From positions 1 to 35,943 of IMG/VR virus record IMGVR_UViG_3300032304_000611: a stretch of DNA of 35,943 nt, one strand, 5' to 3'. The DNA is from a virus. Positions 13,271 through 21,710 of this stretch are shown here, in pieces; position 1 is the first letter of the stretch; every line of letters begins with the position of its first letter. The notes below the pieces were generated by a model that worked only from the letters and a program-made list of their open reading frames with translations, had not been told where the DNA came from and searched no databases. The position numbers and the translations under genes were made by a program.

Positions 13271-13735
13271 TTAGGCTACAAGACCGGGAACATATTGCGT
13301 TTTACCAGCGACTTTCATTGCGGTCAACTCCTGCTTTTTCAGGTTGTTCGGGTCGTAAGACACGTGCACCCAGCCACTATCGGGTATGCCGGGAGTATAA
13401 AACTCAAGGATGAGCTGTGTGTATTCTAAGTTATCCATGATCCATTGCGCAAGCTCTGCGTTGGCTACGCCGGGTATCTCAATATCGGCTGCTTGGCCCT
13501 TCACATGGTCTGAGGACTTCGAGCCTCCTGTGGCCTGATTGGTCTCTGAAGAGCGAAAACCAGATGTCACAGTGACAGACTTGCCAAAGTGGTCACGAAT
13601 AGGCTGAAGCACCTTTTCGCACAAAGTTTTTAAGTTGTCAATAACCTTCTCATCAGGTGTGTTATCCAGCCCCAATCTAATGGCTGTATCTGATCTTGTC
13701 ATTTCTTTCAAAGAAAAATTGGCTGATAAGTTCAT
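13271..13735 (-). CDS. Endolysin, M15-type peptidoglycan peptidase
   Basis: This 154-residue protein carries the metal site of the peptidase M15 family (VanY/DD- or L-Ala-D-Glu-peptidase type): SGFRS at 58-62, SDH-x-x-G-x-AAD at 75-84 (ligands H77 and D84), a probable catalytic Glu at 111 (LILEFY) and the third ligand H124 in WVHVSY. It should cut peptide stems of the host cell wall at lysis. There is no signal peptide or membrane anchor, so a holin would be needed to release it. The start at 13735 has AAAGG about 8 bases upstream. It is separated from the other lysis genes by the phosphoesterase, a small gene and a plus-strand gene. Whether it cuts D-Ala or L-Ala-D-Glu bonds cannot be told from sequence. 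Confidence 0.9.
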   Translation of the reverse strand: MNLSANFSLKEMTRSDTAIRLGLDNTPDEKVIDNLKTLCEKVLQPIRDHFGKSVTVTSGFRSSETNQATGGSKSSDHVKGQAADIEIPGVANAELAQWIMDNLEYTQLILEFYTPGIPDSGWVHVSYDPNNLKKQELTAMKVAGKTQYVPGLVA

Positions 13736-13780
13736 TTCTTTAACCTTTCGTAGTAAAAATTGGTAGATTATTGCTGGCGT

Positions 13781-13809
13781 CTGTCACAATTTGTAGATAG
13801 GATTTTAAT
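13781..13809 (+). promoter_or_regulatory. Candidate sigma70-type promoter for the plus-strand acidic gene
   Basis: CTGTCA (13781-13786, 4 of 6 matches to TTGACA), a 17-base spacer and TTTAAT (13804-13809, 5 of 6 matches to TATAAT) stand 30 bases ahead of the start codon at 13839. The region 13736-13838 is the gap between two divergent genes, so some plus-strand promoter is expected here. The match is modest and unproven. Confidence 0.4.
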
Positions 13810-13838
13810 TGGCAATTGTGCCATTAAAGGAGTTTTTC

Positions 13839-14120
13839 ATGTACAAGATTGAAATTGACATCGCAGACTGGGATTTTGGCTCAGACAAAGTGACCGTTGA
13901 AACCATGGATTTCGACAAGATCGCTATCATTCAGGAATTCATCGAATTCCAAAAACAGCACGATTGGTGCGTTGACTATGACGTTACCGAAGACTGGGTA
14001 TACCAGTGCGATGAAGAAGTTGAAGAAGACGAAAGCGCCGAAGACGAAGAATACGAAGAATACGAAATCGGAGAGACTGTAGAAGACGAAGACGGCTTAG
14101 TCTGGGAACGCGTGGCATAA
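13839..14120 (+). CDS. Extremely acidic small protein, putative moron / DNA mimic
   Basis: This is the only convincing plus-strand gene. The ATG at 13839 has a strong AAAGGAG site 6 bases upstream; an upstream TTG at 13809 has none. The 93-residue product has about 35 Asp/Glu against 5 Lys/Arg. Residues 1-58 are mixed beta/alpha in composition (MYKIEIDIADWDFG, then FDKIAIIQEFIEFQKQ), and residues 55-87 are an almost pure acidic run with Tyr and Val. A candidate promoter precedes it and a hairpin terminator follows, so it is a self-contained unit placed against the flow of the late genes. Such charge and size are seen in DNA-mimic anti-restriction and other host-takeover proteins, but no family is recognised and other roles are possible. 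Confidence 0.88.
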   Translation: MYKIEIDIADWDFGSDKVTVETMDFDKIAIIQEFIEFQKQHDWCVDYDVTEDWVYQCDEEVEEDESAEDEEYEEYEIGETVEDEDGLVWERVA

Positions 14121-14142
14121 TTTAGGTGCAGTTGACCTTTAC

Positions 14143-14169
14143 AGGGGAGTCTTAGGACTCCCCTTTTTT
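14143..14169 (+). terminator. Rho-independent terminator after the acidic gene
   Basis: AGGGGAGTC (14143-14151) pairs perfectly with GACTCCCCT (14156-14164) around a TTAG loop, and six T follow on the plus strand (14164-14169). It lies 23 bases past the stop of the acidic gene. On the minus strand no T-run follows, so it should act mainly on plus-strand transcripts. Its T-run touches the stop codon of the convergent gene. Confidence 0.9.
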
Positions 14170-14380
14170 ATTCAATGCCGTGATCTGCTTCAATGTCCCT
14201 GGCCAACTGTCGCCAATCTAAGCTATGTCTATACAAGCTGTATATACGCTCTTCGCTTAGGGGCTCAGAACGCCTGTTAAGCCTGTCGTTTGCTTGAGCC
14301 AAAGCAAGTTGCGTTTCATGCAAAATGTTATGCAGTTCTTTAATCTCTGATCTCAGATAAGTCACAAGGTCATACGTCAT
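14168..14380 (-). CDS. Small coiled-coil phage protein of unknown function (70 aa)
   Basis: The ATG at 14380 is chosen because AGGGG stands 8 bases upstream; an in-frame TTG at 14401 lacks such a site. Residues 5-40 form a coiled coil (RSEIKELHNILHETQLALAQ), and the C-terminus reads ERIYSLYRHSLDWRQLARDI, which looks like a second short helix pair. It overlaps the end of the phosphoesterase gene by 11 bases, so the two are likely translated together. It converges on the plus-strand acidic gene. I do not recognise the family. Confidence 0.75.
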   Translation of the reverse strand: MTYDLVTYLRSEIKELHNILHETQLALAQANDRLNRRSEPLSEERIYSLYRHSLDWRQLARDIEADHGIE

Positions 14381-15329
14381 AAACTTTACCCCTAAATTCA
14401 ATTTTGTTTTCAGCGCCCCAACTGTGAACTAGCTCAGGCCACAAAAGACGTCCATTATAAAATGTCAGTATGGCAAAACCACTACGCCAATTGGTTGGCG
14501 AGTCCTCTAGATAATTCATAAACTGAGGGCCATCAGGTTCTGCCAATGTGCCAGTATCCACGCCAAATCGGTTGCCGTTGTAGTCTGCAAAGGGCGTTAC
14601 CTTTAAGCTGTGCAAATGACCCGTACAAATTGAGACGCCCGATTGGACGGCGTTATTGTGAGTGGCATGCAGGCCCCCCTTCCAACGGTGCTTGACCACT
14701 ACTTCCTCTGTAGGCCAGCAAGACCAGCAAGAATGCCACGCAGGGAAATGGTCTTTCAAAGAAAAGCCTTTGACAAACTCATATTGAGATGCATTGGCTG
14801 CTAGGCGGTTCTCAAACCTTGCATCATGGTTGCCAAGCGTCCACACTAAGTTGACATTGTGTCTTTCTTTCTTAGCAGTTTCCTCTATCTCACCAAGGGC
14901 TATTTCACACGCTTTTAGTTCTTGAACTACGGACGGTACTGAACTAAAGCCATGAGGGTCATAACGAGAAACAGAAGCTCCATCGAATATGTCTCCATTA
15001 GCAATGACAGCTTTTGGCTGAAACTCTTTAATTGCCCAAAGAAGTCCTTTATACGCGGTTGTATGGATGCCAGGCCAGAAATGAGCATCACTAAAAACAA
15101 TAACAACACCATTTTCAATACCCAATAATTTACGGACTGAATTTTCTTTGATAGTTTGATGCTTACTATTCTTTGACTTAAGTGGCTCGCCGTATCTAGC
15201 CTCTAGGTTGTTTTTACGCCTAATAATATTACGCATATCCATGCCAACGGCTTTGGCAAACGCACTGGCAGACTCATGGGTTTTCCAAAGTTCAATAAAC
15301 TCATGATCGTTGTAAACAGTTTTTCCCAT
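14370..15329 (-). CDS. Calcineurin-like metallophosphoesterase with N-terminal helical domain
   Basis: The metal-binding motifs of the calcineurin-like phosphoesterase superfamily are complete: D81-x-H83 (FSDAHFWPG), NGD at 111-113 with D116, GNHD at 166-169, H221 (or H224) and GHLH at 237-240. It should hydrolyse phosphomono- or diesters with two metal ions; the substrate is unknown. Residues 7-47 (DHEFIELWKTHESASAFAKA, then RNIIRRKNNLEARYG) resemble a small helix-turn-helix and may recognise nucleic acid. It lies within the lysis module, an unusual place for such an enzyme. The ribosome site GGAG, 5 bases before the ATG, is partly inside a hairpin (15330-15350), suggesting control of translation. 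Confidence 0.88.
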   Translation of the reverse strand: MGKTVYNDHEFIELWKTHESASAFAKAVGMDMRNIIRRKNNLEARYGEPLKSKNSKHQTIKENSVRKLLGIENGVVIVFSDAHFWPGIHTTAYKGLLWAIKEFQPKAVIANGDIFDGASVSRYDPHGFSSVPSVVQELKACEIALGEIEETAKKERHNVNLVWTLGNHDARFENRLAANASQYEFVKGFSLKDHFPAWHSCWSCWPTEEVVVKHRWKGGLHATHNNAVQSGVSICTGHLHSLKVTPFADYNGNRFGVDTGTLAEPDGPQFMNYLEDSPTNWRSGFAILTFYNGRLLWPELVHSWGAENKIEFRGKVYDV

Positions 15330-15386: not shown

Positions 15387-15866
15387 CTAATCTAATTTGT
15401 TCAAAGATTTTCTAATTGACTCATAAGAGTCAATGCAGGCATTTAGTTGCCTGATGGCCTGGTCGCCCCGGCTGGTGAGATCGATAAGAGATTGAGCAGT
15501 TCTTGGGTCAAGCTCGGCTCTTGTTTCTGTATCTCCAACGGGAGCGGGGGAATCTGCGGTGGCTGGTACGGGGCAGGAGGTTTGGACAGGGATGAACAAC
15601 CGACGCTCGCCAGAGGCAATATCAGTACGCAGCTTATCTTCTTTAGCTTTTGCAACATTGTTGGCTTTCCTCAAAGTTTGGGCGTATGTTTGAGCAACCT
15701 CACCCATACGTTGTTCTGTTTCCCGTGCCTGTTGGTTTAAACGGGAAATCTCAATCTGCTGACGCTCATACTCATTTTGCTCACCACTGTAATACCCAGC
15801 GCCAAAACTGCCAAGTAGGGCAAGTACAACGCCAAGAAGAATCCAAGGATTAAGTAGGCTTAGCAT
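15387..15866 (-). CDS. Rz: Inner-membrane spanin, Rz-like
   Basis: This 159-residue protein has one N-terminal membrane helix (about residues 8-26, ILLGVVLALLGSFGAGYY), then a long charged coiled coil in the periplasm (30-85, EISRLNQQARETEQRMGEVA). The C-terminal part has Cys at 98 and 143. This is the topology of lambda Rz, which joins an outer-membrane lipoprotein to fuse the two membranes in the last step of lysis. A lipoprotein gene of Rz1 type lies wholly inside it in another frame, which strongly supports the call. It overlaps the end of the upstream two-helix membrane protein gene by 17 bases. Sequence similarity in this family is low, so the call rests on topology and arrangement. Confidence 0.82.
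   Translation of the reverse strand: MLSLLNPWILLGVVLALLGSFGAGYYSGEQNEYERQQIEISRLNQQARETEQRMGEVAQTYAQTLRKANNVAKAKEDKLRTDIASGERRLFIPVQTSCPVPATADSPAPVGDTETRAELDPRTAQSLIDLTSRGDQAIRQLNACIDSYESIRKSLNKLD
15443..15658 (-). CDS. Rz1: Outer-membrane spanin lipoprotein, Rz1-like, nested in Rz
   Basis: This 71-residue reading frame lies entirely within the Rz-like gene, in a different frame. It begins MLQKLKKISCVLILPLASVGC, read as two pieces: a basic start then a short hydrophobic stretch ending at Cys21, a lipobox-like site (S-V-G-C; the -3 residue is Ser rather than the usual Leu or Val). Right after it comes the Pro-rich segment SSLSKPPAPYQPPQIPPLPL, typical of Rz1. It has its own ribosome site (GAGGA, 9 bases before the ATG). 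After lipid attachment it should sit in the outer membrane and bind the Rz coiled coil. Confidence 0.82.
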   Translation of the reverse strand: MLQKLKKISCVLILPLASVGCSSLSKPPAPYQPPQIPPLPLEIQKQEPSLTQELLNLLSISPAGATRPSGN

Positions 15867-18396: not shown

Positions 18397-19602
18397 TTAA
18401 AGATTGCCAGTGTTTGTTGATGGGAAACTGCGTGTTGTACCGGGCCAGATGATACGGACAGCACCGTTACCGCCAGTACCGCCACTAGAACCACATAAAT
18501 TACCGCCACCGCCGCCACCGCCATATGCGCCACCAGTGCCGCCATTTGAACTAGCGTCATAAACAGTGCCGTTTGCGCCGCCACTACCGCCTCTACCATA
18601 TGTACAAGCCTTGGTATTAAAAGTTCCGCCAGCGCCGCCACAGCTTTGACCTAATAAGCCTACGCCACCGCCACCTGAAGCACCGGGATTGCCACCACCT
18701 ACAGTTGACCCCGTACCGCCTCCACCGCCTGAACCGCTTGAGCCACCATTTGTGTTGTTATAAAAACCAGCACCTCCCGCATGGCTATAACCTCCAGCGC
18801 CTCCGCCTCCGCCGCCAGTATTACTTCCACTAAAATTCCATCCACCAGCGCCACCATTACCGCCGCCATCGCCCGTGAAAGTTCCACCGCTTGCAGTAGC
18901 AGTTGGAAATTGTGTTCCATTTATGCCTTCGCCACCTTTAACCACGGCAGTAGAAACAAAATAAGAATCGCTGGCAAAATTGCCTTGCGGCCCTACTTGA
19001 ACTGCATAAGAATTACCGGGTATTACAGTGTAATTATTTTTATATCCTAGCCCACCACCACCGCCACCCCCGCCAGTTCCGCAGGGATTGCCGCATTTAC
19101 CTCTCCCACCACCACCAACAGCAACAACAGATACAGAAGTAACCCCGCTTGGAGCAACCCAAGAGAAAGTACCCGCAGTTGTAAAGGCTTGCTGGCCAGT
19201 AACCACAGTTGGTGTGATGCTGTTTGAAGCCGCGCTTGATGGGCCAGTGCCACCGGGTGTTGCGCCAGCCACAGAAAACGTATAAGCAGTATTAACAGTC
19301 AAACCTGCAACGCTAATAGGCGAAGCGCCTGTTCCAGTTAAACCACCGGGGCTAGAAGTAGCCGTATATGTAACCGCTCCAGTACCAGCATCAGTAGGCG
19401 CTGTGTATGGCACTGATGCCGTTGTACTTCCAGAAGCTATTGTTGCTGTCCCAATCGTAGGAGCGCCGGGGCTTCTAGGCCAGATGCCTTGCTTAACGTA
19501 ATTCTGTGCTTGGTCAAGCGTCCAGATACCCTTTGCTGTCGAAGTTGTTGGGGCCGTTGGGTTCTTGGTGATGATGCCACCGGGGTATTGTTTGATACTC
19601 AT
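18397..19602 (-). CDS. Glycine-rich adhesin/tail fibre protein, paralogue C (401 aa)
   Basis: The N-terminal ~45 residues (KGIWTLDQAQNYVKQGIWPR) are a probable anchor. Residues about 46-135 are one fibronectin type III domain (APTIGTATIASGSTTASVPY, ending SSAASNSITPT). After a conserved link (FSWVAPSGVTSVSVVAVGGG) the remaining ~230 residues are more than one third Gly, in runs such as GGGGGGGGLGY, and the protein ends GAVRIIWPGTTRSFPSTNTG. Gly-rich tips of this kind are known as receptor-binding adhesins in some phages, where they can form packed polyglycine II helices. It is the last of three tandem paralogues. Frame is open throughout; the opposite-strand and shifted frames here are artefacts of the GGN repeats. 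Confidence 0.85.
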   Translation of the reverse strand: MSIKQYPGGIITKNPTAPTTSTAKGIWTLDQAQNYVKQGIWPRSPGAPTIGTATIASGSTTASVPYTAPTDAGTGAVTYTATSSPGGLTGTGASPISVAGLTVNTAYTFSVAGATPGGTGPSSAASNSITPTVVTGQQAFTTAGTFSWVAPSGVTSVSVVAVGGGGRGKCGNPCGTGGGGGGGGLGYKNNYTVIPGNSYAVQVGPQGNFASDSYFVSTAVVKGGEGINGTQFPTATASGGTFTGDGGGNGGAGGWNFSGSNTGGGGGGAGGYSHAGGAGFYNNTNGGSSGSGGGGGTGSTVGGGNPGASGGGGVGLLGQSCGGAGGTFNTKACTYGRGGSGGANGTVYDASSNGGTGGAYGGGGGGGNLCGSSGGTGGNGAVRIIWPGTTRSFPSTNTGNL

Positions 19603-19605
19603 GAA

Positions 19606-20778
19606 TTAAGGCCCTACGCAAGTTGAAGGGAAAGCCGGTGTTCCACGGCTTCCACCAGCCCAGACAATACGGACTGCGCCGCCAGCACCAGCGCGGAAAA
19701 CATAAGTAACGCATTGAAATCCACAGCAAAAGTAGTTAAATCCCCTAGCGCCTGCGCCACCACCACCACCGAAATTACCACCAATACCGGGGTTACACCA
19801 GTTTGTTGTTGTTGCACCGGCTGTTCCACTACTGCCGCCACCTCCACCGCCACCAGCAGCCCCAGCGCCGCCAGTACCGGCAGCACCATTAGAGCCTTGT
19901 CCATAAACTCCGGTTCCACCACCAGCACCCCAGCGGGTTTGACGACATGTAGTGCCATTTGTAGTTGAGCCAGAGCCACCGCCACCACCGCCACCACCGG
20001 AACCCGCAAAACCACCGCAGCTACCTGCACCGCCGGGACCACCAGCACCACCAGCACCAGAATAGCCGCCAGCGCCTCCTGCACCTCTACTCCCCCGTAA
20101 GCCGCCGTTTCCACCACCAGCACCAGCAAATTGTCCGCCAGTAATACCACCATTACTGCCACCGCCATAACCTGCAACGGAGCCAATACTAGTAGCGCAG
20201 CTAGTTCCGCCAATACCGTTTACTATTCCACCAGCGCCTACAGTGATGTTGTATGAAGTACCGGGGGTAACTGACATACCATTGCGCCAACCCAACCCAC
20301 CACCACTAGCGTAACAGCCAAACCCGCTTCCGCCACCGCCACCAATAGCTACTACAGCAACAGAAGTTACACCAGTAGGAGCAACCCATGTGAATGGGCC
20401 GGGGGTTGTGAACGTTGCACAAGTTTGCACAGTAGCTGTAATGCTGTTACTTGCCGCGCTCAACGCGCCATACCCATTAGCATTTGTTGCTTGAGCTTTA
20501 AATGTGTAAGACGTTCCGGAAGTCAAACCAGACACTACAACAGGAGAAGATGCGCCTGTATTTGAAAGGCATCCGGGGGTAGAGATAACACGATAACCTG
20601 TGATGCCCCCAGCAGGGTACCCGGTACAAGCAGGGGCGGTAAATGTCACTGAAGCACAGTTGTTTATACCAGCCGTAGCCGTACCAATCGTAGGCGCACC
20701 GGGCGTTGCTGGCCATGTGCTTGCACCCTTTGCTTGCATCTGCTGGGTGACTGTCCAGATTCCTGAGAAATTAGGCAT
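19606..20778 (-). CDS. Glycine-rich adhesin/tail fibre protein, paralogue B (390 aa)
   Basis: The ATG at 20778 overlaps the stop of paralogue A by one base (TAATG), which decides the start over an upstream TTG. Architecture matches its neighbours: short anchor (FSGIWTVTQQMQ, then WPATPGAPTIGTATA), fibronectin III domain (about residues 20-115), link (FTWVAPTGVTSVAVVAIGGG) and a ~240-residue Gly-rich part with GGGGGGGGSGSTTNG, ending GAVRIVWAGGSRGTPAFPST. It carries more Cys than the others (for example NCASV, PACTG, CFYFCCGF-like pairs near the end), which could give disulfides outside the cell. Probably recognises host surface structures. Confidence 0.85.
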   Translation of the reverse strand: MPNFSGIWTVTQQMQAKGASTWPATPGAPTIGTATAGINNCASVTFTAPACTGYPAGGITGYRVISTPGCLSNTGASSPVVVSGLTSGTSYTFKAQATNANGYGALSAASNSITATVQTCATFTTPGPFTWVAPTGVTSVAVVAIGGGGGSGFGCYASGGGLGWRNGMSVTPGTSYNITVGAGGIVNGIGGTSCATSIGSVAGYGGGSNGGITGGQFAGAGGGNGGLRGSRGAGGAGGYSGAGGAGGPGGAGSCGGFAGSGGGGGGGGSGSTTNGTTCRQTRWGAGGGTGVYGQGSNGAAGTGGAGAAGGGGGGGSSGTAGATTTNWCNPGIGGNFGGGGGAGARGFNYFCCGFQCVTYVFRAGAGGAVRIVWAGGSRGTPAFPSTCVGP

Positions 20779-21710
20779 TAGAGATTCCCCGTACAAGTTG
20801 ATGGGAATGAGCGTGTGTTACCGGGCCAGATTATGCGGACTGCACCGCTTGCGCCGTTAAGACCTGAGGCTACGCCGCCACCGCCATATACACCGCCGTT
20901 AACCGCACCGCCATTAGTGCCACCAGAACCGCCGCCGCCGCTTACTGCACCGTTAGTCCCTTGGCCTAATAGCCCAACGCCACCTCCACCAACGCAATTG
21001 CCACCACCAGCGCCACCACCACCAGCGCCATTTTGGGGCGCAGAACCGCAAATGCTTCCATTGCCGCCGTTACCAGCGTAACCTCCAGCACCGCCGCCAC
21101 CTTCGCCACCTTGACCCCCATTACCTCCGCCGTCGCCTAGTCTAGCAGCGCCCGTAGCAGCGCGGACTGTTGATGTATTTATAAAATATGAGAAGTTTGA
21201 AGCATCACCAATCACTACGCAATAGGAACTACCCGGAGTTACTGAAATATTATTTTTATACGCTAACGCACCGCCGACAATACTTGCAGTACCAACAACC
21301 ACTACAGAGACGGAAGTGACCCCAGTTGGTGCAACCCATGAATATGATGTACTTTTGCCTGTATACACCTGTTGTCCAGCAATCGGTGGAGTTACGCTAT
21401 TTGATGCCGCGCTTGGGTAGCTTGGGCCGAACGCATTTGTGGCAATAACCCTGAAGGTGTAAGCTGTGCCAGCAGTTAAACCAGAAACAACCAAGGGCGA
21501 AGACGCGCCTGTTGCACTGTTAGTTCCAGTGGTATTGCAGTACGCCCTATAAGAAGAAATGGCTCCACCACCAACACACGCTGGTGCAGTAAAGGCCACA
21601 GACACGGAAGTCCCGCTGGCAGCCGTAGCAGTGCCAATAGTCGGCGCGTTAGCGACCTTCAGGGCGTTGTACCCCGATAAAACAATACCAGCTTGATAGC
21701 GCGAACTCAT
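20778..21710 (-). CDS. Glycine-rich adhesin/tail fibre protein, paralogue A (310 aa)
   Basis: This is the first and shortest of the three. It begins MSSRYQAGIVLSGYNALKVA, then a fibronectin III domain (about residues 20-108, APTIGTATAASGTSVSVAFT), the link YSWVAPTGVTSVSVVVVGT and a ~150-residue Gly-rich region, ending GAVRIIWPGNTRSFPSTCTG. A good AAGGGG ribosome site overlaps the upstream stop. The N-terminus differs from paralogues B and C, while the link and the C-terminal motif are nearly the same, so the differing parts may set different attachment points or receptors. Confidence 0.85.
   Translation of the reverse strand: MSSRYQAGIVLSGYNALKVANAPTIGTATAASGTSVSVAFTAPACVGGGAISSYRAYCNTTGTNSATGASSPLVVSGLTAGTAYTFRVIATNAFGPSYPSAASNSVTPPIAGQQVYTGKSTSYSWVAPTGVTSVSVVVVGTASIVGGALAYKNNISVTPGSSYCVVIGDASNFSYFINTSTVRAATGAARLGDGGGNGGQGGEGGGGAGGYAGNGGNGSICGSAPQNGAGGGGAGGGNCVGGGGVGLLGQGTNGAVSGGGGSGGTNGGAVNGGVYGGGGVASGLNGASGAVRIIWPGNTRSFPSTCTGNL

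What the first reader, a model, noticed from the sequence alone, without database searches (positions are those of the whole stretch)
13781..14169. Self-contained plus-strand moron encoding a highly acidic protein
In a window where every other gene is on the minus strand, one 93-residue gene runs the other way with its own candidate promoter, a strong AAAGGAG site and a perfect 9-bp hairpin terminator with a T-run. About 35 of 93 residues are Asp/Glu and 5 are Lys/Arg. Independent cassettes of this kind are typical of morons, and extreme acidity is typical of DNA mimics that block restriction or other DNA-binding defences. No known family is recognised.
Basis: partly seen in the sequence, partly recalled or inferred. 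Interest (0 to 1): 0.7.

Follow-up and report, generated by a model that had tools for sequence, protein, structure and literature searches.

The report
Conserved acidic phage gene, private promoter
A small, very acidic gene of uncultured aquatic phages is not a recent stray insertion but a fixed neighbour of one phosphoesterase gene in over a hundred relatives, nearly always expressed from its own almost unchanging promoter and terminator, and its protein belongs to no described family.

Summary
In detail: window 13839-14117(+) is a 93-residue ORF (35 D/E, 5 K/R), alone on the plus strand, with SD AAAGGAG and a 9-bp terminator. The 'moron' reading does not hold. Relatives (50-99% identity) lie in well over 100 IMG/VR contigs. 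In 131 of 132 distinct loci with enough DNA, the gene sits 50-508 nt from, and convergent with, the same metallophosphoesterase gene. It is under purifying selection (median dN/dS 0.21), and its distances track those of its neighbours. An invariant TGTCA-N11-TAnnnT promoter precedes 109 of 111 copies and is almost absent elsewhere in 1.43 Mb of relatives. A 5-6 bp hairpin at the predicted +1 keeps pairing through whole-stem changes. A GCAGTTG box precedes the terminator. The protein is a small beta-beta-alpha domain, a fast-drifting acidic linker and a conserved C-terminal hairpin. No Pfam, PHROG, PADLOC or PDB match was found, and none in 84,980 bacterial and archaeal genomes. DNA mimicry is possible but untested; the invariant residues lie in the ordered ends, not the acidic linker. 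Best reading: a lineage-fixed phage regulatory or takeover protein made from an insulated, probably activator-dependent mini-transcript near the early/late junction.

The parts
13779..13791 (+). Promoter-distal box; consensus AAyTGTCAyAAwT, in the window GTCTGTCACAATT. The TGTCA core is at 13782-13786, about -28 to -24 from the predicted start
   Evidence: TGTCA invariant in 31 non-redundant upstreams, 2.00 bits per position. TGTCA-N11-TAnnAT: 115 sites at this gene against 3 elsewhere in 1.43 Mb, control spacings 1-11 each
13798..13805 (+). -10 element TAGGAT followed by TT
   Evidence: T1, A2 and T6 invariant, 11 nt after TGTCA in all 98 loci that fit a pattern allowing 9-14; no conserved -35 hexamer
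13809..13823 (+). Palindrome / RNA hairpin (T)TGGCA-ATTG-TGCCA at the predicted transcript start
   Evidence: About 90-97% of cells paired at five stem positions; stems switch TTGGCA/TGCCA, TGCGGG/TCCGCA, TACGGA/TCCGTA; folds in the window 5'UTR at -5.9 kcal/mol
13826..13832 (+). Shine-Dalgarno AAAGGAG, 6 nt before the ATG
   Evidence: direct sequence; purine-rich SD in relatives
13839..14120 (+). ORF 'T', 93 aa acidic protein: ordered N-domain 1-53, acidic linker 54-73, C-terminal hairpin 74-93
   Evidence: family of 57 aligned members with 17 invariant columns; dN/dS 0.19 / 0.55 / 0.28 for N / linker / C; AF2 models
14128..14134 (+). 3'UTR box GCAGTTG
   Evidence: in 83 of 98 distinct downstream regions, 7 nt after the stop in most; in 89 of 91 scored terminators at this gene against 6 of 31 elsewhere, one of the 6 being an edge-truncated copy of this gene's own 3' end
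14143..14169 (+). Intrinsic terminator AGGGGAGTC-TTAG-GACTCCCCT with T-run; works only for plus-strand transcription because the minus side has no T-run
   Evidence: terminator within 90 nt in 100 of 107 distinct loci
14168..14401 (-). Small convergent neighbour gene (77 aa, no known family)
   Evidence: present beside T in many relatives
14370..15329 (-). Metallophosphoesterase (PF00149, phrog_221), the constant partner of T
   Evidence: convergent in 131 of 132 distinct T loci
13271..13735 (-). Peptidase M15-type endolysin, divergent from T in the window and many relatives

Best explanation
T is a lineage-fixed accessory gene of a group of uncultured, mostly aquatic tailed phages. It makes a small, strongly acidic, virus-specific protein from an insulated monocistronic transcript placed at the edge of the lysis block, which in many relatives is also the junction between early-oriented and late genes. 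Shown by sequence: family, fixed place, purifying selection, promoter, hairpin, 3' box, terminator. Inferred: the promoter is used by host RNA polymerase through its -10 plus a regulator bound at TGTCA, which replaces the -35 contact as at T4 middle promoters, so T is made at a set time rather than constitutively; the 5' hairpin and the terminator protect or tune the short mRNA. Inferred and weakest: the protein acts by binding a basic, nucleic-acid-binding partner (host or phage transcription, nucleoid or nuclease protein). Target recognition would lie in the conserved beta-beta-alpha domain and C-terminal hairpin, and the acidic linker would supply only charge.
For: Fixed adjacency and convergence with the phosphoesterase in 131/132 loci. 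dN/dS 0.19 and 0.28 in the ordered parts, 0.55 in a linker that stays acidic. T distances correlate with those of neighbours (r 0.29-0.61), in the range of neighbour pairs among themselves (0.43-0.61), all above 999 permutations. TGTCA-N11-TAnnnT in 109/111 upstreams and nearly private to T. No -35. Hairpin pairing 0.82 against 0.12-0.67 for slid frames and 0.68 mean for shuffled partners. GCAGTTG plus terminator. T at the meeting of opposite-strand blocks, with replication and recombination genes on the early side in L077 and L143. MotA box 12 +/- 1 bp from the -10 replacing -35 in T4 middle promoters (PMC2988021).
Against: No biochemical or expression data. No regulator for the TGTCA box was identified. 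A promoter nearly private to one gene is unusual for a phage-coded activator. The predicted structures are of low confidence (pLDDT 62 and 68). In L214 and L217 T is co-directional behind the phosphoesterase without this promoter and without the C-terminal motif, so neither is indispensable everywhere.
Confidence: 0.4

Rival explanations
1. DNA mimic that blocks restriction or another DNA-binding defence.
For: 35 of 93 residues acidic, net about -30, kept across the family (acidic excess 21 to 38). Small phage protein from its own cassette. The known prototype Ocr is a 117-residue DNA mimic (PMC7261183).
Against: Acidity is densest in a poorly conserved, predicted disordered linker, whereas Ocr mimics a shaped, folded helical turn as a dimer. 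Strongest conservation is in hydrophobic and aromatic residues of the ends. No Foldseek or sequence match to DNA mimics. No gain/loss pattern within the lineage as expected for an arms-race gene. Low model confidence limits this.
Confidence: 0.25
2. T is the functional partner (regulator or inhibitor) of the neighbouring metallophosphoesterase or of the lysis block.
For: Near-absolute linkage, kept even in L214 where T lies on the other strand; distance correlation with the phosphoesterase r=0.52 and with the 77-aa gene r=0.61.
Against: Position alone can keep neighbours together. The phosphoesterase occurs without T in seven loci of a divergent group and T was not found in two GenBank phages with it. 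T-neighbour correlations are no higher than those among other neighbours.
Confidence: 0.2
3. A true moron: a recently gained cassette that moves between phages independently of its surroundings.
For: Opposite strand, own promoter and terminator.
Against: Same place in all near relatives, co-inheritance, purifying selection.
Confidence: 0.05
4. The transcript itself is the main product: a dual-function RNA with a 5' hairpin and a GCAGUUG seed before the terminator, besides or instead of the protein.
For: 5' hairpin and GCAGTTG more conserved than the linker codons; a similar CAGTTG-plus-terminator element stands in an early intergenic region in a clade whose T lacks the box.
Against: dN/dS well below 1 shows that the protein matters. 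No target was identified. GCAGTTG may simply belong to the terminator. No Rfam match above threshold.
Confidence: 0.1

Closest known systems
T7 Ocr (gp0.3) and other DNA-mimic proteins (ArdA, Arn)
   Same: small, strongly acidic, phage-encoded (Ocr, Arn) or plasmid-encoded (ArdA)
   Different: no sequence or fold match found; acidity concentrated in a drifting linker; no DNA-like shape shown; placed at the lysis block
T4 middle promoters (MotA box plus -10)
   Same: a box replaces the -35 element at a short fixed distance from a sigma70-like -10 (PMC2988021)
   Different: box is TGTCA, about 4 bp closer to the -10 than the MotA box; nearly private to one gene; activator unknown
PhoB-dependent promoters (Pho box, CTGTCAT tandem repeats)
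   Same: a CTGTCAy half-site before a -10 and no -35; the 11-nt spacing resembles what I recall for E. coli phoA and pstS (from memory, not checked here)
   Different: the tandem second half-site 11 bp upstream is absent, so it is not a Pho box as defined in PMC3511308
BFVD A0A6J5LQI9 (uncultured Caudovirales phage)
   Same: 45% identity over 65 columns, Foldseek E 4.5e-4; probable family member
   Different: 74 aa; function unknown

Membership tests
Moron (independently acquired phage cassette) | own promoter and terminator, strand against its neighbours | tested here: met
Moron (independently acquired phage cassette) | present/absent patchwork among close relatives at the site | tested here: not met
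   62 of 69 phosphoesterase loci have it; absences only in the 66-68% identity group; 131/132 fixed adjacency
DNA-mimic protein | extreme net negative charge | tested here: met
   35 D/E, 5 K/R; family acidic excess 21-38
DNA-mimic protein | folded surface with DNA-like charge spacing | tested here: inconclusive
   AF2 pLDDT 62 and 68; no PDB match at E<=0.001
DNA-mimic protein | binds and inhibits a DNA-binding protein | not testable with these tools
   needs an assay
Known anti-defence or phage protein family | profile match in Pfam, PHROGs, PADLOC or PDB sequences | tested here: not met
   (best PHROG E 0.0044 in single members, not consistent)
PhoB-regulated promoter | two tandem 7-bp CTGTCAT repeats with a 4-bp AT-rich linker | tested here: not met
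   mean 1.81 of 7 matches at the tandem place, within background 1.4-2.8
sigma70 promoter | -35 TTGACA 16-18 nt before the -10 | tested here: not met
   3-7 of 32 non-redundant upstreams with >=4/6 matches at a given spacer of 16-18; absent from the consensus scan
sigma70 promoter | -10 hexamer TAnnnT | tested here: met
   T1, A2, T6 invariant in 31 non-redundant upstreams

The most novel reading that the evidence does not exclude
A new family of phage regulators (or inhibitors) whose single gene carries a private, activator-dependent promoter of a so far undescribed type (TGTCA-N11-TAnnnT with a hairpin at +1) and an RNA 3' element (GCAGUUG plus terminator), together forming a self-timed switch between early and lysis expression in an abundant uncultured phage group.
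Probability: 0.2. Interest if true: 0.75.

Novelty: new variant of a known kind. Interest (0 to 1): 0.5.

Why it matters
Small acidic phage proteins are a main source of inhibitors of host machinery and defences, but most are orphans. This one is a well-populated family with clear invariant residues, a constant genomic partner and an almost invariant promoter, so both its regulation and its target can be tested directly. It also shows that opposite strand plus own promoter and terminator does not by itself make a gene a moron.

Tried and rejected
tblastn of T and of its N-terminal half against 50,697 phage records: no hits. T and phosphoesterase in 84,980 bacterial and archaeal genomes: no relatives, so no host or prophage could be named. 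Pfam, PHROG and PADLOC: nothing consistent. PDB sequence and Foldseek: nothing significant. Pho box: half-site only, rejected. Promoter as a genome-wide phage promoter class: rejected for the DNA held, nearly private to T (early regions only partly covered). sRNA second sites: the group in L066, L069 and L113 is at least partly the coding end of another gene ('QLS*', read), so it is not good evidence for sRNA genes; the group in L142, L138 and L174 remains open. Rfam: only below-threshold chance matches. tRNAs: none. One search misclassified all terminators as belonging to T because of an empty string in the script; corrected. The structure count failed on length and was replaced by a script.

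Full report
What is there. The window is a 35,943-base virus record. The plus-strand ORF at 13839-14117 encodes 93 residues, 35 of them Asp/Glu and 5 Lys/Arg. Its charge density of -0.32 per residue stands far outside that of the other window proteins, the next being -0.10.

The family. A scan of one genome per 84,980 bacterial and archaeal species found none, and GenBank phages gave none by tblastn (the low-complexity filter may hide weak hits). A Foldseek match in BFVD, A0A6J5LQI9 at 45% identity, is a probable member from an uncultured phage. Pfam, PHROGs, PADLOC and PDB sequences give no consistent match.

Anatomy of the protein. The alignment shows an N-terminal part (YKIEI..., VTVET, DFDKIAIIQEFIEFQ, W, Y), a linker of variable length rich in D and E, and a C-terminal motif GExVEDEDGLVWERV. 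AF2 gives two strands and a helix (residues 2-7, 17-22, 25-40), a low-confidence linker and a C-terminal hairpin. Mean pLDDT is 62 for the window protein and 68 for a short-linker relative. Median dN/dS is 0.19 for the N part, 0.55 for the linker and 0.28 for the C part (a simple Nei-Gojobori count over related pairs, so the values are indicative). The protein is therefore real and constrained, and the most constrained parts are not the most acidic ones.

Place. In 131 of 132 distinct loci with at least 1.6 kb on the 3' side, a metallophosphoesterase gene lies convergent to T at 50-508 nt, median 257. Starting from the phosphoesterase instead, 62 of 69 loci with enough DNA have T. The seven without it belong to the 66-68% identity group. 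In that same divergent group L214 and L217 carry T co-directional behind the phosphoesterase, without the promoter and without the C-terminal motif. Protein distances of T correlate with those of its neighbours (r 0.29-0.61), in the range of neighbours among themselves (0.43-0.61), all above 999 permutations. The T-spanin value of 0.29 is the lowest. This is co-inheritance, not independent traffic.

In the window and its closest relatives T is embedded between minus-strand endolysin and phosphoesterase genes. In many others the plus-strand block left of the endolysin, or directly left of T, holds small and early-type genes, for example a primosomal/O-like protein, PAPS reductase and HNH endonuclease in L077. 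In L143 the replication genes (primase/helicase, exonuclease, Holliday resolvase) lie further left, on the minus strand. T thus often marks the meeting of blocks of opposite strand.

Promoter. Aligning 111 upstream regions shows TGTCA, then exactly 11 nt, then TAnnnT followed by TT, in 109; the two exceptions are L214 and L217. In 31 non-redundant sequences TGTCA and the T, A and T of the -10 are invariant. TGTCA-N11-TAnnAT occurs at 115 T sites and 3 other sites in 1.43 Mb of relatives; other spacings give 1-11. No -35 hexamer is conserved and no tandem Pho half-site exists. The architecture, a non-sigma box at a short fixed distance from a -10, works like that of T4 middle promoters, where the MotA box lies 12 +/- 1 bp from the -10 and replaces the -35 (PMC2988021). 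It is not a member of that class: box sequence and distance differ. That a regulator binds TGTCA is inference.

Hairpin at +1. Directly after the -10, at 13809-13823 in the window, lies a palindrome that keeps its pairing while the stem changes from TTGGCA/TGCCA to TGCGGG/TCCGCA and TACGGA/TCCGTA. Paired cells are 0.82 for six pairs, against 0.68 mean and 0.72 maximum for shuffled partners and at most 0.67 for slid frames. Its register moves by one base in a few sequences. An RNA hairpin at the 5' end fits (such stems can stabilise mRNA; Emory, Bouvet and Belasco 1992, cited in PMC3997798). A DNA operator whose sequence changed with its repressor cannot be excluded.

3' end. GCAGTTG stands between the stop codon and the terminator in 83 of 98 distinct downstream regions and within 22 nt of 89 of 91 scored terminators at T, against 6 of 31 terminators elsewhere. 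One of those six (L186) is an edge-truncated copy of this gene's own 3' end. A terminator was found within 90 nt in 100 of 107 distinct loci. The function of the box is unknown.

Interpretation. The facts above are shown by sequence comparison. That the cassette gives a timed, insulated pulse of a small acidic protein is a fair inference. What the protein binds is not shown. The moron idea is contradicted within this lineage. No host can be named from these data.

Noticed in passing
L142, L138, L127, L110, L174, L173, L175, L179, L182 (positions): A leader-like element (TTGGCGG ... GCCAGTTGCC, strong terminator, T-run) in an early intergenic region; in L174 it lies between divergent genes. Several of these phages have a T without the GCAGTTG box. 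Could be an attenuator or a small RNA.
   Followed up: partly
14370-15329: The metallophosphoesterase has about 60 residues before its catalytic domain that look like a helix-turn-helix (by eye), as if it bound DNA; it is not found in the bacterial genomes scanned.
   Followed up: no
15387-15866 and 15443-15658: Rz-like spanin with a lipoprotein-like small ORF (o-spanin candidate) nested in another frame.
   Followed up: no
L214:4983-5237, L217:3386-3616: T homologues on the same strand as the phosphoesterase, lacking the C-terminal GxxxxDxDGxxW motif and the TGTCA promoter.
   Followed up: partly
18397-21710: Three successive large minus-strand ORFs with repeated glycine-rich stretches and shared N-terminal motifs (APTIGTATA...), possibly tandemly duplicated tail or appendage genes.
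   Followed up: no
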